A stretch of 13,639 nucleotides of DNA, from assembly GCA_034717985.1 (NCBI GenBank), contig JAYEMH010000025.1, positions 1 through 13,639 of the forward strand. The letters run 5' to 3'. This document shows positions 1 to 13,628 of the stretch, piece by piece. Below the pieces are notes generated by a model. The model made no database searches. It was given only the letters and a program-made list of their open reading frames with translations, and was not told the DNA's origin. The translations under genes and the position numbers were made by a program. Position 1 is the first letter of the stretch, and every line of letters begins with the position of its first letter. The DNA comes from JAYEMH01 sp034717985 [NCBI: Candidatus Ratteibacteria bacterium]. Its GTDB lineage: Bacteria > CAZDME01 > JAYEMH01.

Positions 1-66
1 TTTTTCCGTGTTCTCCGTGGTTATTTTGTTTTTTTCTTTTTCTCTTTGTCTTTTCTGTGGTTAATT
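1..66. repeat. Dispersed ACAGAG-type purine/pyrimidine repeat, left copy
   Basis: The plus strand has CCGTGTTCTCCGTGGTTATTTT followed by CTTTGTCTTTTCTGTGGTTAAT-like text, in two tandem units each ending in a GTGGTTA word. The same word type recurs at 9705-9780. Here it overlaps the 3' end of the rsfS reading frame. Function is unknown; the copy count genome-wide cannot be seen from one window. Confidence 0.6.
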
Positions 67-409
67 TCTGCTTTCTTTCTATTCGTTTGGCATCTCCCCA
101 GAGCTTTTCCAACCGATAAAATTCCCTGGCTTCATCGCGGAAAATGTGAACGATTACATCCCCGTAATCAAGGAGAATCCAATTTAAAAATTTAGACCCT
201 TCGATTCCCAGGGGCTTTTCCTTGTTTTTCGCCAGACCTTCTATGACACCGTCAGCTACCGCCTCAAGATGAACGGAAGATGTGCCGCTGCAGATAACAA
301 AATAATCAGTTATGGACATAAGCTTTTTCATCTCTAAGATAACAATACGTTTGGCCTTTTTATCCGCGGCAAAATTCCCGGCTAAAAGAGCTTTTTGTTT
401 GGATTTCAA
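1..409 (-). CDS. rsfS: Ribosomal silencing factor RsfS, open at left edge
   Basis: RsfS (RsfA/YbeB/Iojap family) binds ribosomal protein L14 and blocks joining of the 30S and 50S subunits when nutrients are scarce. The translated minus strand contains the family core: ITDYFVICSGTSS, then WILLDYGDVIVHIF, and REFYRLEKLWGDA near the end of the conserved domain. From the TTG at 407-409 there are 136 codons with no stop before the window edge; the family is usually about 105-120 residues, so the last 20 or more residues (basic, Lys/Arg/Gln-rich) are an extension read from the ACAGAG-type repeat at 1-66. There is no ATG. An in-frame TAA at 419-421 limits the start to ATC (416-418), ATT (413-415) or TTG (407-409). 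The AGGAGG at 424-429 lies 8 nt from ATT but 14 nt from TTG. I give the TTG start, but ATT is a serious alternative. It is last in the rplU-to-rsfS gene series. Identity is secure; both ends are uncertain. Confidence 0.9.
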   Translation of the reverse strand, partial: MKSKQKALLAGNFAADKKAKRIVILEMKKLMSITDYFVICSGTSSVHLEAVADGVIEGLAKNKEKPLGIEGSKFLNWILLDYGDVIVHIFRDEAREFYRLEKLWGDAKRIERKQKLTTEKTKRKRKKQNNHGEHGK

Positions 410-5271: not shown

Positions 5272-6450
5272 CTAATTTGAAACTCTCCTTTGACTGGCGG
5301 CGCGGCGGATAGCAGCCTCGCCGAATTTTTCTTTTATTTTATCCACCGCTTGATGAATTCTTTCTTTTTTCTCATCAACTATGTCATTAAAGAGGCTTTC
5401 GTTACCATTTCTTGAATCAAGATTAGAAACCTTAATTCCTATCAGGCGAATCTTCCTGCCTTTTAAGTTGAAATTGTTAAAAAGTCTTTTTGCTGTCTGG
5501 TAAATCGTATCTACAAAATTGGTAGTCTTCAATAAAGTCTTAGACCGGGTATAAGTATGAAAGCCTTCAAGCCGGATTTTTAAAGTAATGGTTCTGCCTT
5601 CAATGTTTTCCCGCCGAAGGCGGCCCGATACTTTCTCACAAAGGCCGATGAGAAAACCTTCTATTTTTTCTCTATCCCGAATGTCTTCAGCAAAGGTAAC
5701 CTCATTGCTTATGGATTGCCGTTCCTCATCGGTTTCAACTTCTCTTTCATCTATCCCATTGGCCAGCTGCCAGAGGTGCCCGCCATTTTTTCCCAACACA
5801 TCCACTACTTTTTTCAAATCTGTTCCGGCTAACTCTCCAATAGTTTTAATGCCCATCTTATTTAAAACCACTTTGCTTTTTTTACCCAGGCCCCAAATCT
5901 TTTCGATATCAAGCGGCCGGAGAAAATCAAGCAATCCTTGCCGAGTAACCGCAACTAAACCATCAGGCTTCTTTAAATCAGAAGCGATTTTTGCCGCCAT
6001 TTTTGTCGGCGCCAGTCCAACTGAAGCAGTCAAACCGGTTTCCGTCTTTATCCTGGATTTAAGCAATCTGCAAGTCTCAAGCGGAGTGCCGAAAATATGA
6101 TAACTGCCGCTTATATCTAAAAAAGCCTCATCAATACTTATCCCTTCGATTTCGGGCGTAAAACTGTAAAATAAATCAAAAATTTTCAAAGAGAGGCGGC
6201 TGTATTTTTCCATATCAACCGGCAAAAAGACCGCCCGGGGACACTTTCGGTATGCTATCGATATGGGCATCCCTGAAGAGATTCCGAATTTTCTGGCTTC
6301 ATAAGAACAGGCGCAGACAACCCCTCTGCCCTTTCCTCCTTTAGGGTCAGCGCCGACAATTACCGGCTTGCCTCGCAGGGCGGGATTATCACGCTGTTCG
6401 ACCGCGGCAAAAAACGCATCCATATCGATATGGATAATAAATTTTTCCAT
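5272..6450 (-). CDS. dinB: DNA polymerase IV (Y family)
   Basis: DinB copies past DNA lesions with low fidelity. The 392 residues show the palm motif HIDMDAFFAAVEQ (catalytic Asp9, likely steric gate Phe14), the fingers segment YEARKFGISSGMP at about 50-62 and SIDEAFLD with Asp107 and Glu108. Helix-hairpin-helix-type text follows (KIWGLGKKSKVVLNKMGIKTIGELA), then the little-finger domain with RTITLKIRLEGFHTYTRS. A C-terminal NESLF at about 350-354 is a weak sliding-clamp motif, followed by KEKFGEAAIRRAA. The ATG directly abuts the queE stop (TAAATG) with GAGG 3 nt upstream, so it is translated as the last gene of the gerMN-murI-queDCE-dinB operon. No SOS box is visible at this start. Confidence 0.95.
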   Translation of the reverse strand: MEKFIIHIDMDAFFAAVEQRDNPALRGKPVIVGADPKGGKGRGVVCACSYEARKFGISSGMPISIAYRKCPRAVFLPVDMEKYSRLSLKIFDLFYSFTPEIEGISIDEAFLDISGSYHIFGTPLETCRLLKSRIKTETGLTASVGLAPTKMAAKIASDLKKPDGLVAVTRQGLLDFLRPLDIEKIWGLGKKSKVVLNKMGIKTIGELAGTDLKKVVDVLGKNGGHLWQLANGIDEREVETDEERQSISNEVTFAEDIRDREKIEGFLIGLCEKVSGRLRRENIEGRTITLKIRLEGFHTYTRSKTLLKTTNFVDTIYQTAKRLFNNFNLKGRKIRLIGIKVSNLDSRNGNESLFNDIVDEKKERIHQAVDKIKEKFGEAAIRRAASQRRVSN

Positions 6451-9630: not shown

Positions 9631-9780
9631 AGAGCACAGAGACACTTAAAAATAAAACGCTTTTTGTTTTTCCCCTTTTCCCTTTATTTTTTTCTTCTTT
9701 TTTCAGCGTCTCTGCTCTTCAGTGTTTCTGTGGTTTGTCCTTTGTTTCTTTTTTCTCTCTGTGGACTCTGTGGTTTATTT
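9631..9780. repeat. ACAGAG-type repeat cluster in the amidase-gerMN spacer
   Basis: AGAGCACAGAGACACT at 9631-9646 is inverted, with a one-base gap, as AGCGTCTCTGCTCT at 9705-9718. Then AGTGTTTCTGTGGTTT (9721-9736) and CTCTGTGGACTCTGTGGTTT (9757-9776) repeat the GTGGTTT word seen at 1-66. The interior 9655-9704 is nearly pure pyrimidine on the plus strand. The two halves could fold into a hairpin on either strand. It fills most of the 199-nt gene-free spacer 9613-9811; I see no convincing promoter there. Confidence 0.6.
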
Positions 9781-9811
9781 CATATCTTTTCATAACTTAT
9801 TTGACACGACC

Positions 9812-11074: not shown

Positions 11075-11117
11075 CATAGCCTTATTTATACCAGAAGTTC
11101 GCCCGAAAAGCAACAAA

Positions 11118-11146
11118 ATTATACTTATTCAAAAAATGAGGTTTAA
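11118..11146 (-). promoter_or_regulatory. Candidate promoter of the amidase gene
   Basis: On the minus strand TTAAAC (11141-11146) and a perfect TATAAT (11118-11123) are 17 nt apart. The -10 lies about 44 nt before the amidase ATG. The -35 is weak (3 of 6) and falls inside the preceding gene's terminator hairpin. A second box, extended TGG-TATAAA, is closer to the ATG but would leave almost no leader. Confidence 0.5.
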
Positions 11147-11151
11147 CCTCA
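11131..11151 (-). terminator. Short intrinsic terminator of the nuclease gene
   Basis: On the minus strand TGAGGT-TAA-ACCTCA forms a 6-bp stem with a 3-nt loop and runs into TTTTTT (11136 down to 11131). The TGA stop codon of the nuclease gene is the first three bases of the stem. The stem is short, so termination may be partial. Confidence 0.5.
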
Positions 11152-11904
11152 ACCAGCCACATCATTCACAGCATTTCGATAACTGCAGAAATCGCAATCC
11201 TTGCCGGTGAACGGAATTTGGTCGTTCTTAAGACAAGCATGAATATCTTTAATTGTGCCTTCAACCCAGTTGTCATTGCCTTCATAAGCAATCAAGGTCA
11301 TGTCAAATTCAAGCTTTCCGTCAAAGGCCTCTAAGTTAGTTTTTCCGTTACAATAAACAAAATATCCGGTATTTGACACTTTATAGTCATTTCGCCGCAA
11401 CAGCCATTGATAAATTTCCATCTGCCGCTTATAGCTATCCTGCCAATCCTTATTAAGCGCAACTATTTCTTCGTTTTTGCTGGTAGACTTATAATCTACT
11501 ACGATATATTCGCCGGCCGGATTTTGCCATAAGTCATCTATGGCACCGTGCACAAGCAAATTAGTCGATTCATGCAAGAACTGCACTCCTTTAAAGTTAT
11601 TCCGCCACTCATCAAGTTGCTTATGTGCTGCAGGCACAGCAGTTACGCCATATTTTTTCATCAATGGATGTGCCTGGCCATTCTTTCGTAAAAGATCAAA
11701 CTCCTTTTTAAGCAAAGTATCCACTGCAATGTTCAATGTATATGGGTAACTTAGAGGTCGCCCTACACCAAGCCTTCTATCCAAATAAAAACACCTCGGA
11801 CATTGCAAAAAAAGCTCTATTTTTGAACGACTTAATTTGAACGGAGGGGAACTACCAGGCTTATATACATTATTCAATCTTCTCGGACTATAATATTCAG
11901 ACAT
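11149..11904 (-). CDS. PD-(D/E)XK nuclease, Cas4/RecB-like
   Basis: The 251-residue product looks like a PD-(D/E)XK-superfamily exonuclease related to Cas4 and the AddB/RecB nuclease domain. Visible are SRSKIELFLQCPRCFYLDRR at about 25-44, GAIDDLW with Asp123, VVDYKS with Asp137 and Lys139 (the D...DxK core), and the family Q motif QMEIYQWLL from Gln161. Four cysteines form two CxxC pairs, Cys35/Cys38 and Cys237/Cys240, which could hold an iron-sulfur cluster. I chose the ATG at 11902-11904 because GGGGGGAG lies 7 nt upstream; a TTG at 11931 would add nine residues. The partial XRE ORF overlaps its start. It probably processes or degrades DNA ends; target and pathway are unknown, and no cas genes are nearby. 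Confidence 0.75.
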   Translation of the reverse strand: MSEYYSPRRLNNVYKPGSSPPFKLSRSKIELFLQCPRCFYLDRRLGVGRPLSYPYTLNIAVDTLLKKEFDLLRKNGQAHPLMKKYGVTAVPAAHKQLDEWRNNFKGVQFLHESTNLLVHGAIDDLWQNPAGEYIVVDYKSTSKNEEIVALNKDWQDSYKRQMEIYQWLLRRNDYKVSNTGYFVYCNGKTNLEAFDGKLEFDMTLIAYEGNDNWVEGTIKDIHACLKNDQIPFTGKDCDFCSYRNAVNDVAG

Positions 11905-12137
11905 TTTATTTCTCCCCCCAAACTTTTGCAATTCGGTCTTTGATTTTTGAAAGCGATTTTTGTAAGTGTATCAAGTGTGGGATTTTTGTTTAGGCCGGAT
12001 TCTATTTTGATAAGTGCGCTATATGTAATTCCTGCTTTTTGAGCAAGCTGTTCTAATGAAGTGTGTCCCTCGCCTAAACATTCGAAAAATCTCTTCGATA
12101 TTTTTTGAAGAGGCTTCGGGATAGTTTTGCTTCGCAA
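11874..12137 (-). pseudogene. XRE-family HTH regulator, probably degraded
   Basis: An 87-codon minus-strand frame contains a good lambda-repressor-type HTH: SLEQLAQKAGITYSALIKIE at about residues 27-46, then SGLNKNPTLDTLTKIA. After that the expected last helix is missing, and the frame continues as basic, unrelated residues into the first codons of the nuclease gene. The +1 frame there reads LSKIKDRIAKVWGEK then stops just before the nuclease ATG, so a one-base indel is plausible. The only start is a TTG inside a perfect hairpin (12123-12141), with no ribosome binding site, and the region before the HTH matches XRE helix 1 poorly. I judge it a remnant of a regulator once paired with the nuclease; a functional short protein is possible. 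Confidence 0.55.
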
Positions 12138-12458
12138 AACTTATGGTGGACCCGGTCACAACCAATTCGAACTACGGCTGAAATCCAAGCCCATATCAAA
12201 GTCCTACCTGCAAAGTACCCTCATTTATACCAGAAACTAGCCCAAAAAGCAACTGAATTGCATTTATTAGGTATGTCTTATAATCAAATCGGGAAGGCCT
12301 TAGGAATTGACCATAAAACAGCCATCAAGGCTATCCGGTCATGTTCTATTTATTATTCACCCTACGCAATCTACTCTACCCAAAACCCAAATACATCTGG
12401 GCCCAAGTCCACATTTTACATGAAACTGAAAAGGCTATCCTTGTTTACAACGGCATGA
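12105..12458 (+). pseudogene. Plus-strand HTH fragment, possibly transposase/recombinase remnant
   Basis: The frame is open from a TTG but lacks an ATG and any ribosome binding site. The first 20 codons are antisense to the XRE ORF. Only about residues 24-77 look protein-like: AEIQAHIKVLP, YPHLYQKLAQKATELHLLG, then the HTH MSYNQIGKALGIDHKTAIKAI, resembling helix-turn-helix domains of transposases and resolvases. The remainder is Ser/Tyr/Pro-rich with no family character, so the gene is probably broken. It is the only plus-strand coding signal in the window apart from the small ORF overlapping its end. I do not recognise a specific family. Confidence 0.4.
12123..12141. repeat. Perfect 8-bp hairpin at the XRE 5' end
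   Basis: AGTTTTGC (12123-12130), TTC loop, GCAAAACT (12134-12141). The word AGTTTTGCTTC recurs exactly at 13580-13590 in the right-edge hairpin. The hairpin interrupts the expected N-terminus of the XRE frame and may mark a junction of an inserted segment. Confidence 0.7.
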
Positions 12459-12601: not shown

Positions 12602-13423
12602 TTACTCCAGACATTTGTATAAACGCTCTATTTTTTCTCGCAAGGTTGCAAGTATCAGGTCTTTTTTATCGGGATATAAAGATTCTTTATCTATTTCTTT
12701 TTCCTTTAAATATTTAAGCGCTTCTTCTCTCTCAGAAACCGGTAAATGGCAACAGGCGATAAACTTTTCCTTATTCTCACCACCTGACTTTGAAGTATTA
12801 AACTTAAAAATATCTTGATGATCCCCACATTCATCTGCTGAAATTTCAACCTCAAGACCTTCCTCATCATGAGAATATATATAAACACATTCTTGCGCAC
12901 GTTGTCGAGGCAGTACAGATTTTGGTTCTTCCACCCAGACTATACGAGGATCTCGAGATGGACATTTTCCCCACGCATCATTATCAATGAGAAATATAGC
13001 CACTTCTTTCGATGCTTCACACATACCCTCAAAAGCAAAATATACTGCTTTAAAAGGATTGCACGTCCAGTCTAATAATGGTGTAGGTAATCTTAAATGT
13101 TGTAGTATTCCCATGACAACATTTTGATCTTTTTTACTATTTCGATTTACCTGACGTTCAATAAGCGACTCAATCTCTTTTCCACACTCAGCAAAAATAG
13201 TGCCTGTTAGCCAATCAATAAATCTTGGATGGCGACCTTTAAGTGTGCTTTTTATATATTCTGATTCTCGATACAAACTCGGGATCAATTTCCAGTTCTC
13301 CCAACTATTCCCTTGACCACGAAAAAGAGGCGTTTTTAACACCTTTGTAATTTCTGGAATTATGCAACAAATTTCTCGCCATGTTTTAATTGCAGAAAAC
13401 TGTTCCATAATATCTGCTGTCAT
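12602..13423 (-). CDS. FRG-domain protein
   Basis: The 273-residue product carries the FRG domain, named for its conserved Phe-Arg-Gly: LFRGQGNSWENWKLIPSLYR at about residues 33-52, then the second core block LPTPLLDWTCNPFKAVYFAF at about 112-131. FRG domains are widespread in bacteria and phages and recur in defence islands, but their biochemical role is not established. The C-terminal third is Glu/Lys-rich with no motif I recognise; no membrane segment or signal peptide is visible. I chose the ATG at 13421-13423, with GGAGA 7 nt upstream. A GTG at 13468 would add 15 residues read from a repeat. The gene looks AT-richer than the housekeeping genes, suggesting recent acquisition. It is flanked by REP-like words on both sides and by large hairpins upstream. 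Confidence 0.85.
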   Translation of the reverse strand: MTADIMEQFSAIKTWREICCIIPEITKVLKTPLFRGQGNSWENWKLIPSLYRESEYIKSTLKGRHPRFIDWLTGTIFAECGKEIESLIERQVNRNSKKDQNVVMGILQHLRLPTPLLDWTCNPFKAVYFAFEGMCEASKEVAIFLIDNDAWGKCPSRDPRIVWVEEPKSVLPRQRAQECVYIYSHDEEGLEVEISADECGDHQDIFKFNTSKSGGENKEKFIACCHLPVSEREEALKYLKEKEIDKESLYPDKKDLILATLREKIERLYKCLE

Positions 13424-13440
13424 CCGTCTATCTCCAGTAT

Positions 13441-13493
13441 AAAAAGGGACGATTTTATTTTTCACCACGGGTTATTAAGATCGTCCCCTTTTT
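13441..13493. repeat. Inverted repeat upstream of the FRG gene
   Basis: AAAAAGGGACGAT (13441-13453) and ATCGTCCCCTTTTT (13480-13493) are inverted copies with one extra C and a 26-nt spacer. It lies just before the FRG gene's ribosome binding site, so on the minus-strand mRNA a stem would form in the 5' leader. The GGGGACGAT word matches the REP-like words at 12550-12600. Confidence 0.65.
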
Positions 13494-13521
13494 ATTATAA
13501 ATTTCTTACACATAATGCGGA

Positions 13522-13593
13522 GCTAAGCGAACTTCGTATAATGAGGGTGATAACGGAGTTATCAGCCCGGGTTATGCGAAGTTTTGCTTCAGC
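13522..13593. repeat. 72-nt imperfect hairpin with one-sided bulges
   Basis: Base pairing in order: GCT (13522-13524) with AGC (13591-13593); AAGCGAA (13525-13531) with TTTTGCTT region; CTTCGTATAA (13532-13541) with TTATGCGAAG (13572-13581), one T-G wobble; an internal loop TGA/GGG; GGG (13545-13547) with CCC (13566-13568); TGATAAC (13548-13554) with GTTATCA (13558-13564) around a GGA loop. The single unpaired bases (G13565, one extra T near 13582-13585, C13590) all lie on the right arm. The architecture recalls folded recombination sites. There is no coding signal in 13424-13639. Confidence 0.75.
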
Positions 13594-13598
13594 GATTT

Positions 13599-13628
13599 GT
13601 TGGGCGGCGCAGCGCCGAGATGCCCAAC
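13599..13628. repeat. GTTGGGC/GCCCAAC palindrome with inner GC-rich hairpin
   Basis: GTTGGGC (13599-13605) and GCCCAAC (13622-13628) are perfect inverted 7-mers. Between them GGCG-CAG-CGCC forms a nested hairpin, with GAGAT unpaired on the right side. The 7-mers fit the integron attC core patterns GTTRRRY and RYYYAAC, but here GTTRRRY comes first, the reverse of a complete attC site. Confidence 0.7.

What the first reader, a model, noticed from the sequence alone, without database searches (positions are those of the whole stretch)
13522..13593. Long hairpin with all single-base bulges on one arm
This stem extends from 13522 to 13593, with an internal loop, a wobble pair and three unpaired single bases, all on the right arm. 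One-sided extrahelical bases plus an unpaired internal spacer are hallmarks of single-stranded recombination substrates such as folded attC sites. The outer arm ACTTCGTATAA also resembles XerC-type half-sites. It is much larger than a terminator, and it has no U-tract.
Basis: partly seen in the sequence, partly recalled or inferred. Interest (0 to 1): 0.6.

Follow-up and report, generated by a model that had tools for sequence, protein, structure and literature searches.

The report
Integron cassette recombination site (attC)
The hairpin is the folded core of an integron gene-cassette recombination site (attC) in a bacterium that resembles uncultivated Omnitrophota; the kind of site is well known, but it sits beside a candidate phage-defence gene and carries an unusual base at the crossover point.

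Summary
The hairpin is real and stronger than chance. Read on the minus strand, it is the inner part of a 96-nt attC site, 13605 to 13510. A covariance model built from 31 attC sites near integron integrases in other genomes (window excluded) finds only this place in the window convincingly: 31.0 bits, E 6e-6, next 10.9 bits. A second model without the two most similar loci still finds it (26.2 bits, E 8e-5). The nearest relative found is a 96-nt attC in an array beside an integrase (L107); it shares the ends, while its loop stem has other letters but still pairs. The one-sided bulges fit attC extrahelical bases: T13583 and C13590, six bases between them, on the plus strand, which is the recombining bottom strand of attC. 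One defining feature is damaged: the crossover motif GTTRRRY reads ATTATGT, so this is probably a weak or decayed attC. The neighbouring gene encodes an FRG protein of a candidate phage-defence class. The XerC idea is not supported. New member of a known kind.

The parts
13510..13605 (-). whole attC site, 96 nt (top strand = minus strand; the recombining bottom strand = plus strand)
   Evidence: CM R1 31.0 bits, E 6.2e-6; CM R2 without L107 and L111 26.2 bits, E 8.1e-5
13599..13605 (-). R'' box GCCCAAC, fits RYYYAAC in 7 of 7 positions
   Evidence: sequence; CM alignment
13584..13593 (-). L'' box, 9 bases in model pairs around the extrahelical base at 13590
13590..13590 (+). extrahelical base C on the bottom strand (canonical base is G; C in 7 of 31 training sites, inferred from their top strand)
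13583..13583 (+). extrahelical base T on the bottom strand, six bases between it and C13590 (T-N6-C; T in 31 of 31 training sites); its exact place within the T run is interchangeable
13531..13582 (-). variable terminal structure, including the XerC-like arms and the 3-nt loop 13555-13557
13522..13530 (-). L' box, pairs with L''
13517..13521 (-). unpaired spacer between L' and R' (faces 13594-13598)
13594..13598 (-). unpaired spacer between R'' and L''
13510..13516 (-). R' box ATTATGT; consensus is GTTRRRY, the crossover G is A here
   Evidence: 60 of 61 model hits in integron loci have G there
13606..13616 (+). GGCGCAGCGCC directly outside R''; GGCGCTGCGCC stands at the same place in L107 (6268-6278)
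12602..13423 (-). FRG-domain gene, first gene after the attC in cassette direction; candidate phage-defence class PDC-S15; start taken as the ATG at 13423 with GGAG just upstream (inference)
   Evidence: Pfam FRG 1.8e-16 for 12602-13468, PADLOC PDC-S15 1.9e-30 for 12602-13423

Best explanation
The hairpin is the L-box stem and variable end of an integron attC site, read in cassette direction from 13605 to 13510 on the minus strand. Inferred from the attC family: when the DNA is single-stranded, the plus (bottom) strand folds; integron integrase recognises the R and L boxes with the help of the extrahelical bases T13583 and C13590; the strand is cut in R', and the cassette is excised or inserted. 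Shown here: anatomy, homology, covariation in the homologs and the position of the extrahelical bases. Not shown: activity, or the presence of an integrase in this genome. Because the crossover base is A instead of G, I think the site most likely works poorly or is a relic, at the downstream edge of an array that would continue beyond the right end of the window.
For: CM R1, 31 attC rows from 12 loci, window excluded: 31.0 bits, E 6.2e-6, other window hits at most 10.9 bits; also found with default filters among 87,841 bases, E 4e-5. Held-out CM R2: 26.2 bits, E 8.1e-5, next 11.6 bits. Controls: 0 hits with E up to 10 in 1,250,385 bases of 80 control loci with default filters; best 14.3 bits in 83,975 bases of 4 of these loci with filters off. 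Covariation in the training set: 89.8% of cells paired, 128 double-changed cells against a shuffled mean of 44.9. 18 of 384 genomes of the phylum of L036 (a Candidatus Omnitrophota record; G001) have a match over the TIGR02249 cut-off, and all 18 are among the 74 of 384 with attC hits; 12 of the 18 gave training rows, 6 did not. Nearest relative found, L107 6267-6172: shared R''-L'' and L', different variable end, in an array beside an integrase. On the bottom strand 19 of 20 model pairs are standard, on the top strand 16 of 20.
Against: R' is ATTATGT, not GTTRRRY. The R boxes pair poorly: in the fold of the 96 nt they stay open on both strands. The score is low for an attC: 55 of 61 hits in the integron loci score above 31 bits. 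Only one attC lies in the window, and single attC are treated with caution because of false positives (passages of PMC9024848). No attC follows the FRG gene. No integrase in the window (reading); the genome is not held. The pairing advantage of the bottom strand is not a general trait of the training set (0.898 top against 0.897 bottom).
Confidence: 0.93

Rival explanations
1. Xer/dif-type site: the arms ACTTCGTATAA / TTATGCGAAGT are two inverted XerC half-sites, used as a double- or single-stranded Xer substrate.
For: ACTTCGCATAA is printed in papers on dif and pdif sites (search listing). One viral contig has such arms upstream of what reads like a tyrosine recombinase gene (named from reading the translation).
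Against: The half-sites are 30 bases apart instead of the 6-8 of dif (recalled), no XerD half-site is adjacent, and the letters are mostly replaced in the attC homolog while the flanking attC boxes stay. 0 of 384 genomes of the phylum of G001 have the exact arm pattern.
Confidence: 0.02
2. Ordinary hairpin: a terminator-like or regulatory RNA structure, or a miniature inverted-repeat element.
For: Strong fold as RNA (-46.2 kcal/mol, z -4.6). Other hairpins lie beside it.
Against: No Rfam family at gathering score in the window; weak matches that overlap the hairpin have E 7.6 or worse. The terminator scan lists none here. It matches attC in boxes, spacing and bulges.
Confidence: 0.03
3. A chance look-alike of attC: a strong palindrome plus accidental boxes.
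For: Damaged R'; single site; modest score compared with relatives.
Against: E 6e-6 and 8e-5 in two models. A motif of R'', L'', L' and R' in register, written to allow the window's A, occurs 0 times in 2,500,770 control bases counting both strands, once in the window and 8 times in the 20 integron loci. 23 of the first 25 letters equal those of the L107 attC.
Confidence: 0.02

Closest known systems
attC at L107 6267-6172 (minus), second attC from the integrase in an array of genome G165
   Same: 96 nt long; same R'' GCCCAAC, near-identical L'' region AAATCGCTnAAGC, L' side GTTCGCTTAGCTCCGC; a GGCGC(A/T)GCGCC outside R'' is shared too
   Different: R' is GTTAGCC (intact G); C instead of G at the top-strand extrahelical position; different variable terminal stem
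Canonical attC sites of integron gene cassettes (such as aadB)
   Same: R''-L''-variable end-L'-R' layout, two extrahelical bases T-N6-x on the bottom strand (T-N6-G for aadB: passages of PMC3518468)
   Different: crossover G replaced by A; second extrahelical base C instead of G
dif/pdif sites of XerC/XerD
   Same: letters of the XerC half-site in the variable arms
   Different: no XerD half-site, wrong spacing, letters not kept in the homolog

Membership tests
integron attC site | R'' box RYYYAAC at one end | tested here: met
   GCCCAAC at 13605-13599
integron attC site | R' box GTTRRRY with crossover between G and TT (passages of PMC3518468) | tested here: not met
   ATTATGT at 13516-13510: 5 of 7 positions fit, crossover G is A. 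I therefore claim descent from attC (homology), not that it is an intact, working attC.
integron attC site | L''/L' boxes paired with an extrahelical base | tested here: met
   9 pairs 13522-13530 with 13584-13593 on the bottom strand, one of them a wobble; C13590 unpaired
integron attC site | two extrahelical bases on the same arm of the bottom strand, T-N6-G | tested here: inconclusive
   T13583-N6-C13590: arm and spacing fit, C instead of G; the same C is inferred in 7 of 31 training sites
integron attC site | unpaired central spacer and variable terminal structure | tested here: met
   13517-13521 and 13594-13598 unpaired; 13531-13582 stem
integron attC site | matches a covariance model of attC | tested here: met
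   E 6.2e-6 and 8.1e-5 with models made here from attC beside integrases; the published IntegronFinder model is not on hand
integron attC site | integron integrase in the same genome, or several attC in a cluster | not testable with these tools
   no genome held; one attC only in the window
integron attC site | recombined by an integron integrase as folded bottom strand | not tested
   needs an assay
dif / Xer site | XerC and XerD half-sites 6-8 bases apart (recalled) | tested here: not met
   no XerD half-site next to 13531-13541; the second XerC-like arm is 30 bases away

The most novel reading that the evidence does not exclude
The site is a working attC whose crossover triplet is ATT. That would mean an integrase lineage in Omnitrophota-like bacteria that tolerates a base otherwise nearly invariant, in an array that stores phage-defence genes such as the adjacent FRG gene.
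Probability: 0.12. Interest if true: 0.55.

Novelty: new member of a known kind. Interest (0 to 1): 0.33.

Why it matters
It shows that an attC can be suspected from raw sequence by its one-sided bulges. It also points to integrons as a common feature of a little-studied candidate phylum: 18 of 384 sampled genomes have an integrase and 74 of 384 have attC hits. Searches of the paper library: 'integron' with 'Omnitroph' gave 2 papers, each with the word 'integron' once (listing only); none when 'gene cassette' was added; 'attC' with 'Omnitroph' gave 2 papers whose titles are on other subjects (listing only). If the defence-like gene beside the site is or was a cassette, it adds to the idea that chromosomal integrons store defence genes (idea recalled, not searched here).

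Tried and rejected
Rfam at gathering and E-value thresholds: nothing convincing on the hairpin. BLAST of the site region: no match in plasmids at E 0.1 or phages at E 1; in plasmids at E up to 10, 16 records with E 0.4 or worse, taken as chance. Arm pattern in viral contigs: one contig, taken as unrelated; in 384 genomes: none. attC-end pattern in viral contigs: none. The ObgE scan of genome contigs gave no close relative: the 80 loci kept have 44-54% identity. ProB: 40-50% in the 18 integrase genomes; matches at E 1e-110 or better in 2 of 193 genomes of the phylum, both 54%; no better match in the family of G007 (2 genomes) or the order of G078 (5 genomes). Placement in Omnitrophota therefore rests on gene order and is tentative. 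FRG relatives at E 1e-8 or better: 2 of 384 genomes, 28-30% identity; no attC hit in the short loci around them. My first attC scan, too strict and on short flanks, printed no site. Paper searches with no result.

Rows dropped: of 40 attC candidates, 30 went into A1 and 10 were left out (near-duplicates, very long or doubtful ones). One row of A1, L107:6172-6267, came; I had noticed its likeness to the window, which is why R2 leaves it out. A3 has 25 rows of A1 plus 4 hits, and drops all rows of L107 and L111 and one row of L108. The candidates were selected to have GTT, so the count of G at the crossover (60 of 61) is biased. One of the 61 hits (L104 12665-12747) is the same site on the other strand.

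Considered and rejected: the plus strand as attC top strand (R'' would be ACATAAT; the full-length model hit is on the minus strand).

Full report
Observation. The 121-nt region folds as DNA at -24.5 kcal/mol on the plus strand and -22.1 on the minus strand, z about -4.2 and -4.1, and none of 200 shuffles is as good on either. As RNA it gives -46.2 kcal/mol, z -4.6. The unpaired single bases do lie on the right arm.

Surroundings. Most of the window is a housekeeping block read on the minus strand: rsfS, nadD, proA, proB, obgE, rpmA, rplU, then dinB, queE, queC, queD, murI, a GerMN-like gene and an amidase (names other than the amidase are from reading the translations, the amidase). The order rplU-(rpmA)-obgE-proB-proA-nadD recurs in an Omnitrophota contig (L036, where no rpmA match was found) and in two genomes of the same phylum (L163, L164) at about 36-69% identity. 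I therefore take the organism to be Omnitrophota-like, tentatively. From about 11.1 kb on the region looks like an island: a PD-(D/E)XK/Cas4-like gene, an HTH gene, a possible transposon remnant (weak HTH matches only) and an FRG-domain gene. The attC ends at 13605, 34 bases before the end of the window.

From hairpin to attC. No whole genome is held for the window, so I looked at other genomes. In the phylum of L036, 18 of 384 genomes have a match over the TIGR02249 cut-off. The flanks that I fetched (20 regions) hold attC-like sites in many cases. One of them, L107 6267-6172, begins GCCCAACAAATCGCTCAAGCGAAAC and ends GGTTCGCTTAGCTCCGCGTTAGCC. The window, read on the minus strand from 13605, begins GCCCAACAAATCGCTGAAGCAAAAC and ends AGTTCGCTTAGCTCCGCATTATGT. 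Both are 96 nt long. The middle differs strongly but is a stem in both.

Test with covariance models. R1 was built from 31 attC of 12 loci without the window. The structure is well supported by those rows: 89.8% of cells paired against 70.2% in shuffles, 128 double-changed cells against 44.9, and slid structures fall to 30-45% paired. With filters off, R1 finds in the window 13605-13510(-) at 31.0 bits, E 6.2e-6; the next hit has 10.9 bits, E 0.87. R2, without any row of L107 or L111, gives 26.2 bits, E 8.1e-5, next 11.6 bits, and finds the left-out L107 and L111 sites. Controls: no hit with E up to 10 in 1.25 Mb of 80 loci with default filters, which can lose weak matches, and a best score of 14.3 bits in 84 kb (4 of those loci) with filters off. 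In the phylum, 74 of 384 genomes have hits at E 0.001 or better, under stricter filters. They include all 18 integrase genomes; 6 of these 18 gave no training row. E-values of these models are rough by the tool's own statement.

Anatomy. R'' 13605-13599 (GCCCAAC), spacer 13598-13594, L'' 13593-13584, variable terminal structure 13582-13531, L' 13530-13522, spacer 13521-13517, R' 13516-13510. On the plus strand, the bottom strand of attC, T13583 and C13590 are extrahelical with six bases between them; which T of the run is out cannot be told. A review passage says that recombination of the bottom strand is about 1000 times more efficient and that spacer, extrahelical bases and variable end steer this choice (PMC8946536, passages). 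The T-N6-G arrangement is reported for the most easily excised sites (PMC3518468, passages). In the 31 training sites the first base is T in all, and the second is G in 20, C in 7 and A in 4, inferred from the top strand. On the bottom strand 19 of 20 model pairs are standard, against 16 of 20 on the top strand, because three A.C mismatches become G.T wobbles. The training set as a whole shows no such difference, so this may be incidental. The bottom strand also folds slightly better (-18.7 against -16.4 kcal/mol).

What does not fit. R' reads ATTATGT, so the G of the crossover G/TT is lost. Of 61 model hits in the integron loci, 60 have G there and one weak hit has T; selection of the candidates for GTT biases this count. 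By the attC mechanism the G stays with the attC on recombination, so the A should be a later mutation (inference). The R boxes do not close in the predicted fold. The score is below 55 of the 61 hits. No attC follows the FRG gene. Three readings remain: a relic, a weak site, or a site used by a tolerant integrase. I favour relic or weak site.

Context of the cassette. In cassette direction the array would run from beyond 13639 towards lower coordinates: a preceding cassette, this attC, then the FRG gene. Upstream of R'' a short open frame (LELVGHLGAAPPNKSLKQNFA, stop) runs into the attC from the window edge, but in L107 the stretch before the sister attC has no ORF of 60 aa or more. A GGCGC(A/T)GCGCC stem directly outside R'' is shared with L107, which suggests that the two sites descend from one cassette end. 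The FRG protein matches PADLOC candidate class PDC-S15 at 1.9e-30. Whether the FRG gene is or was a cassette is not shown.

Xer idea. The arm letters resemble a XerC half-site (papers seen as search listing only). They lie in the variable end, are mostly replaced in the sister attC, and have no XerD half beside them. The one viral contig with the arm pattern has it upstream of what reads like a tyrosine recombinase, and shows no attC hit; I take it as unrelated.

Novelty. The kind is known: attC sites have been modelled for 11 taxa (PMC8352920, passages) and integrons are reported in many bacterial phyla and in archaea (PMC9668308, passages). Words beginning 'Omnitroph' do not occur in the main text of three integron papers in which I looked for them (PMC9668308, PMC8352920, PMC9024848), and three library searches listed no paper that is by its title on integrons of that phylum. 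That is a gap in the searched library, not proof of novelty.

Verdict. A real attC by descent, new member of a known kind, probably weak or decayed. Interest 0.33.

Noticed in passing
window 13599-13628: On the minus strand GTTGGGC (13628-13622) stands just before R'' GCCCAAC (13605-13599) and is its exact complement, as the R' of a preceding attC would be; this could mark a tiny ORF-less cassette, or just a GC-rich hairpin.
   Followed up: partly
L107 about 6347-6391 (+) and L111 about 11215-11260 (-): Short attC-like pieces with AGCTCCGCGTTGCGC ends, in the orientation opposite to the array, just upstream of the attC that resemble the window's site.
   Followed up: partly
genomes of the phylum of L036 / G001: Integrons look common in this phylum: 18 of 384 sampled genomes with an integron integrase, 74 of 384 with attC hits.
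   Followed up: partly
window 13440-13499: A second strong hairpin with GGGACGAT arms and T runs on both sides, between the attC and the FRG gene start; could be a two-way terminator or a small repeat element.
   Followed up: no
window 11077-11129 and 12216-12268: 53-nt repeat, 79% alike, one copy around the start of the amidase frame and one inside a frame with weak transposase-HTH matches.
   Followed up: no
window 14-68 and 9718-9781: A T-rich CTGTGG repeat of 55 nt in both places, 73% alike at best.
   Followed up: no
L001 4040-4200: Viral contig with several ACTTCGCATAA-like copies in both orientations directly upstream of what reads like a tyrosine recombinase gene, split into two frames.
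   Followed up: no
window 11149-12137: PD-(D/E)XK gene with Cas4 model matches beside a small HTH gene.
   Followed up: no
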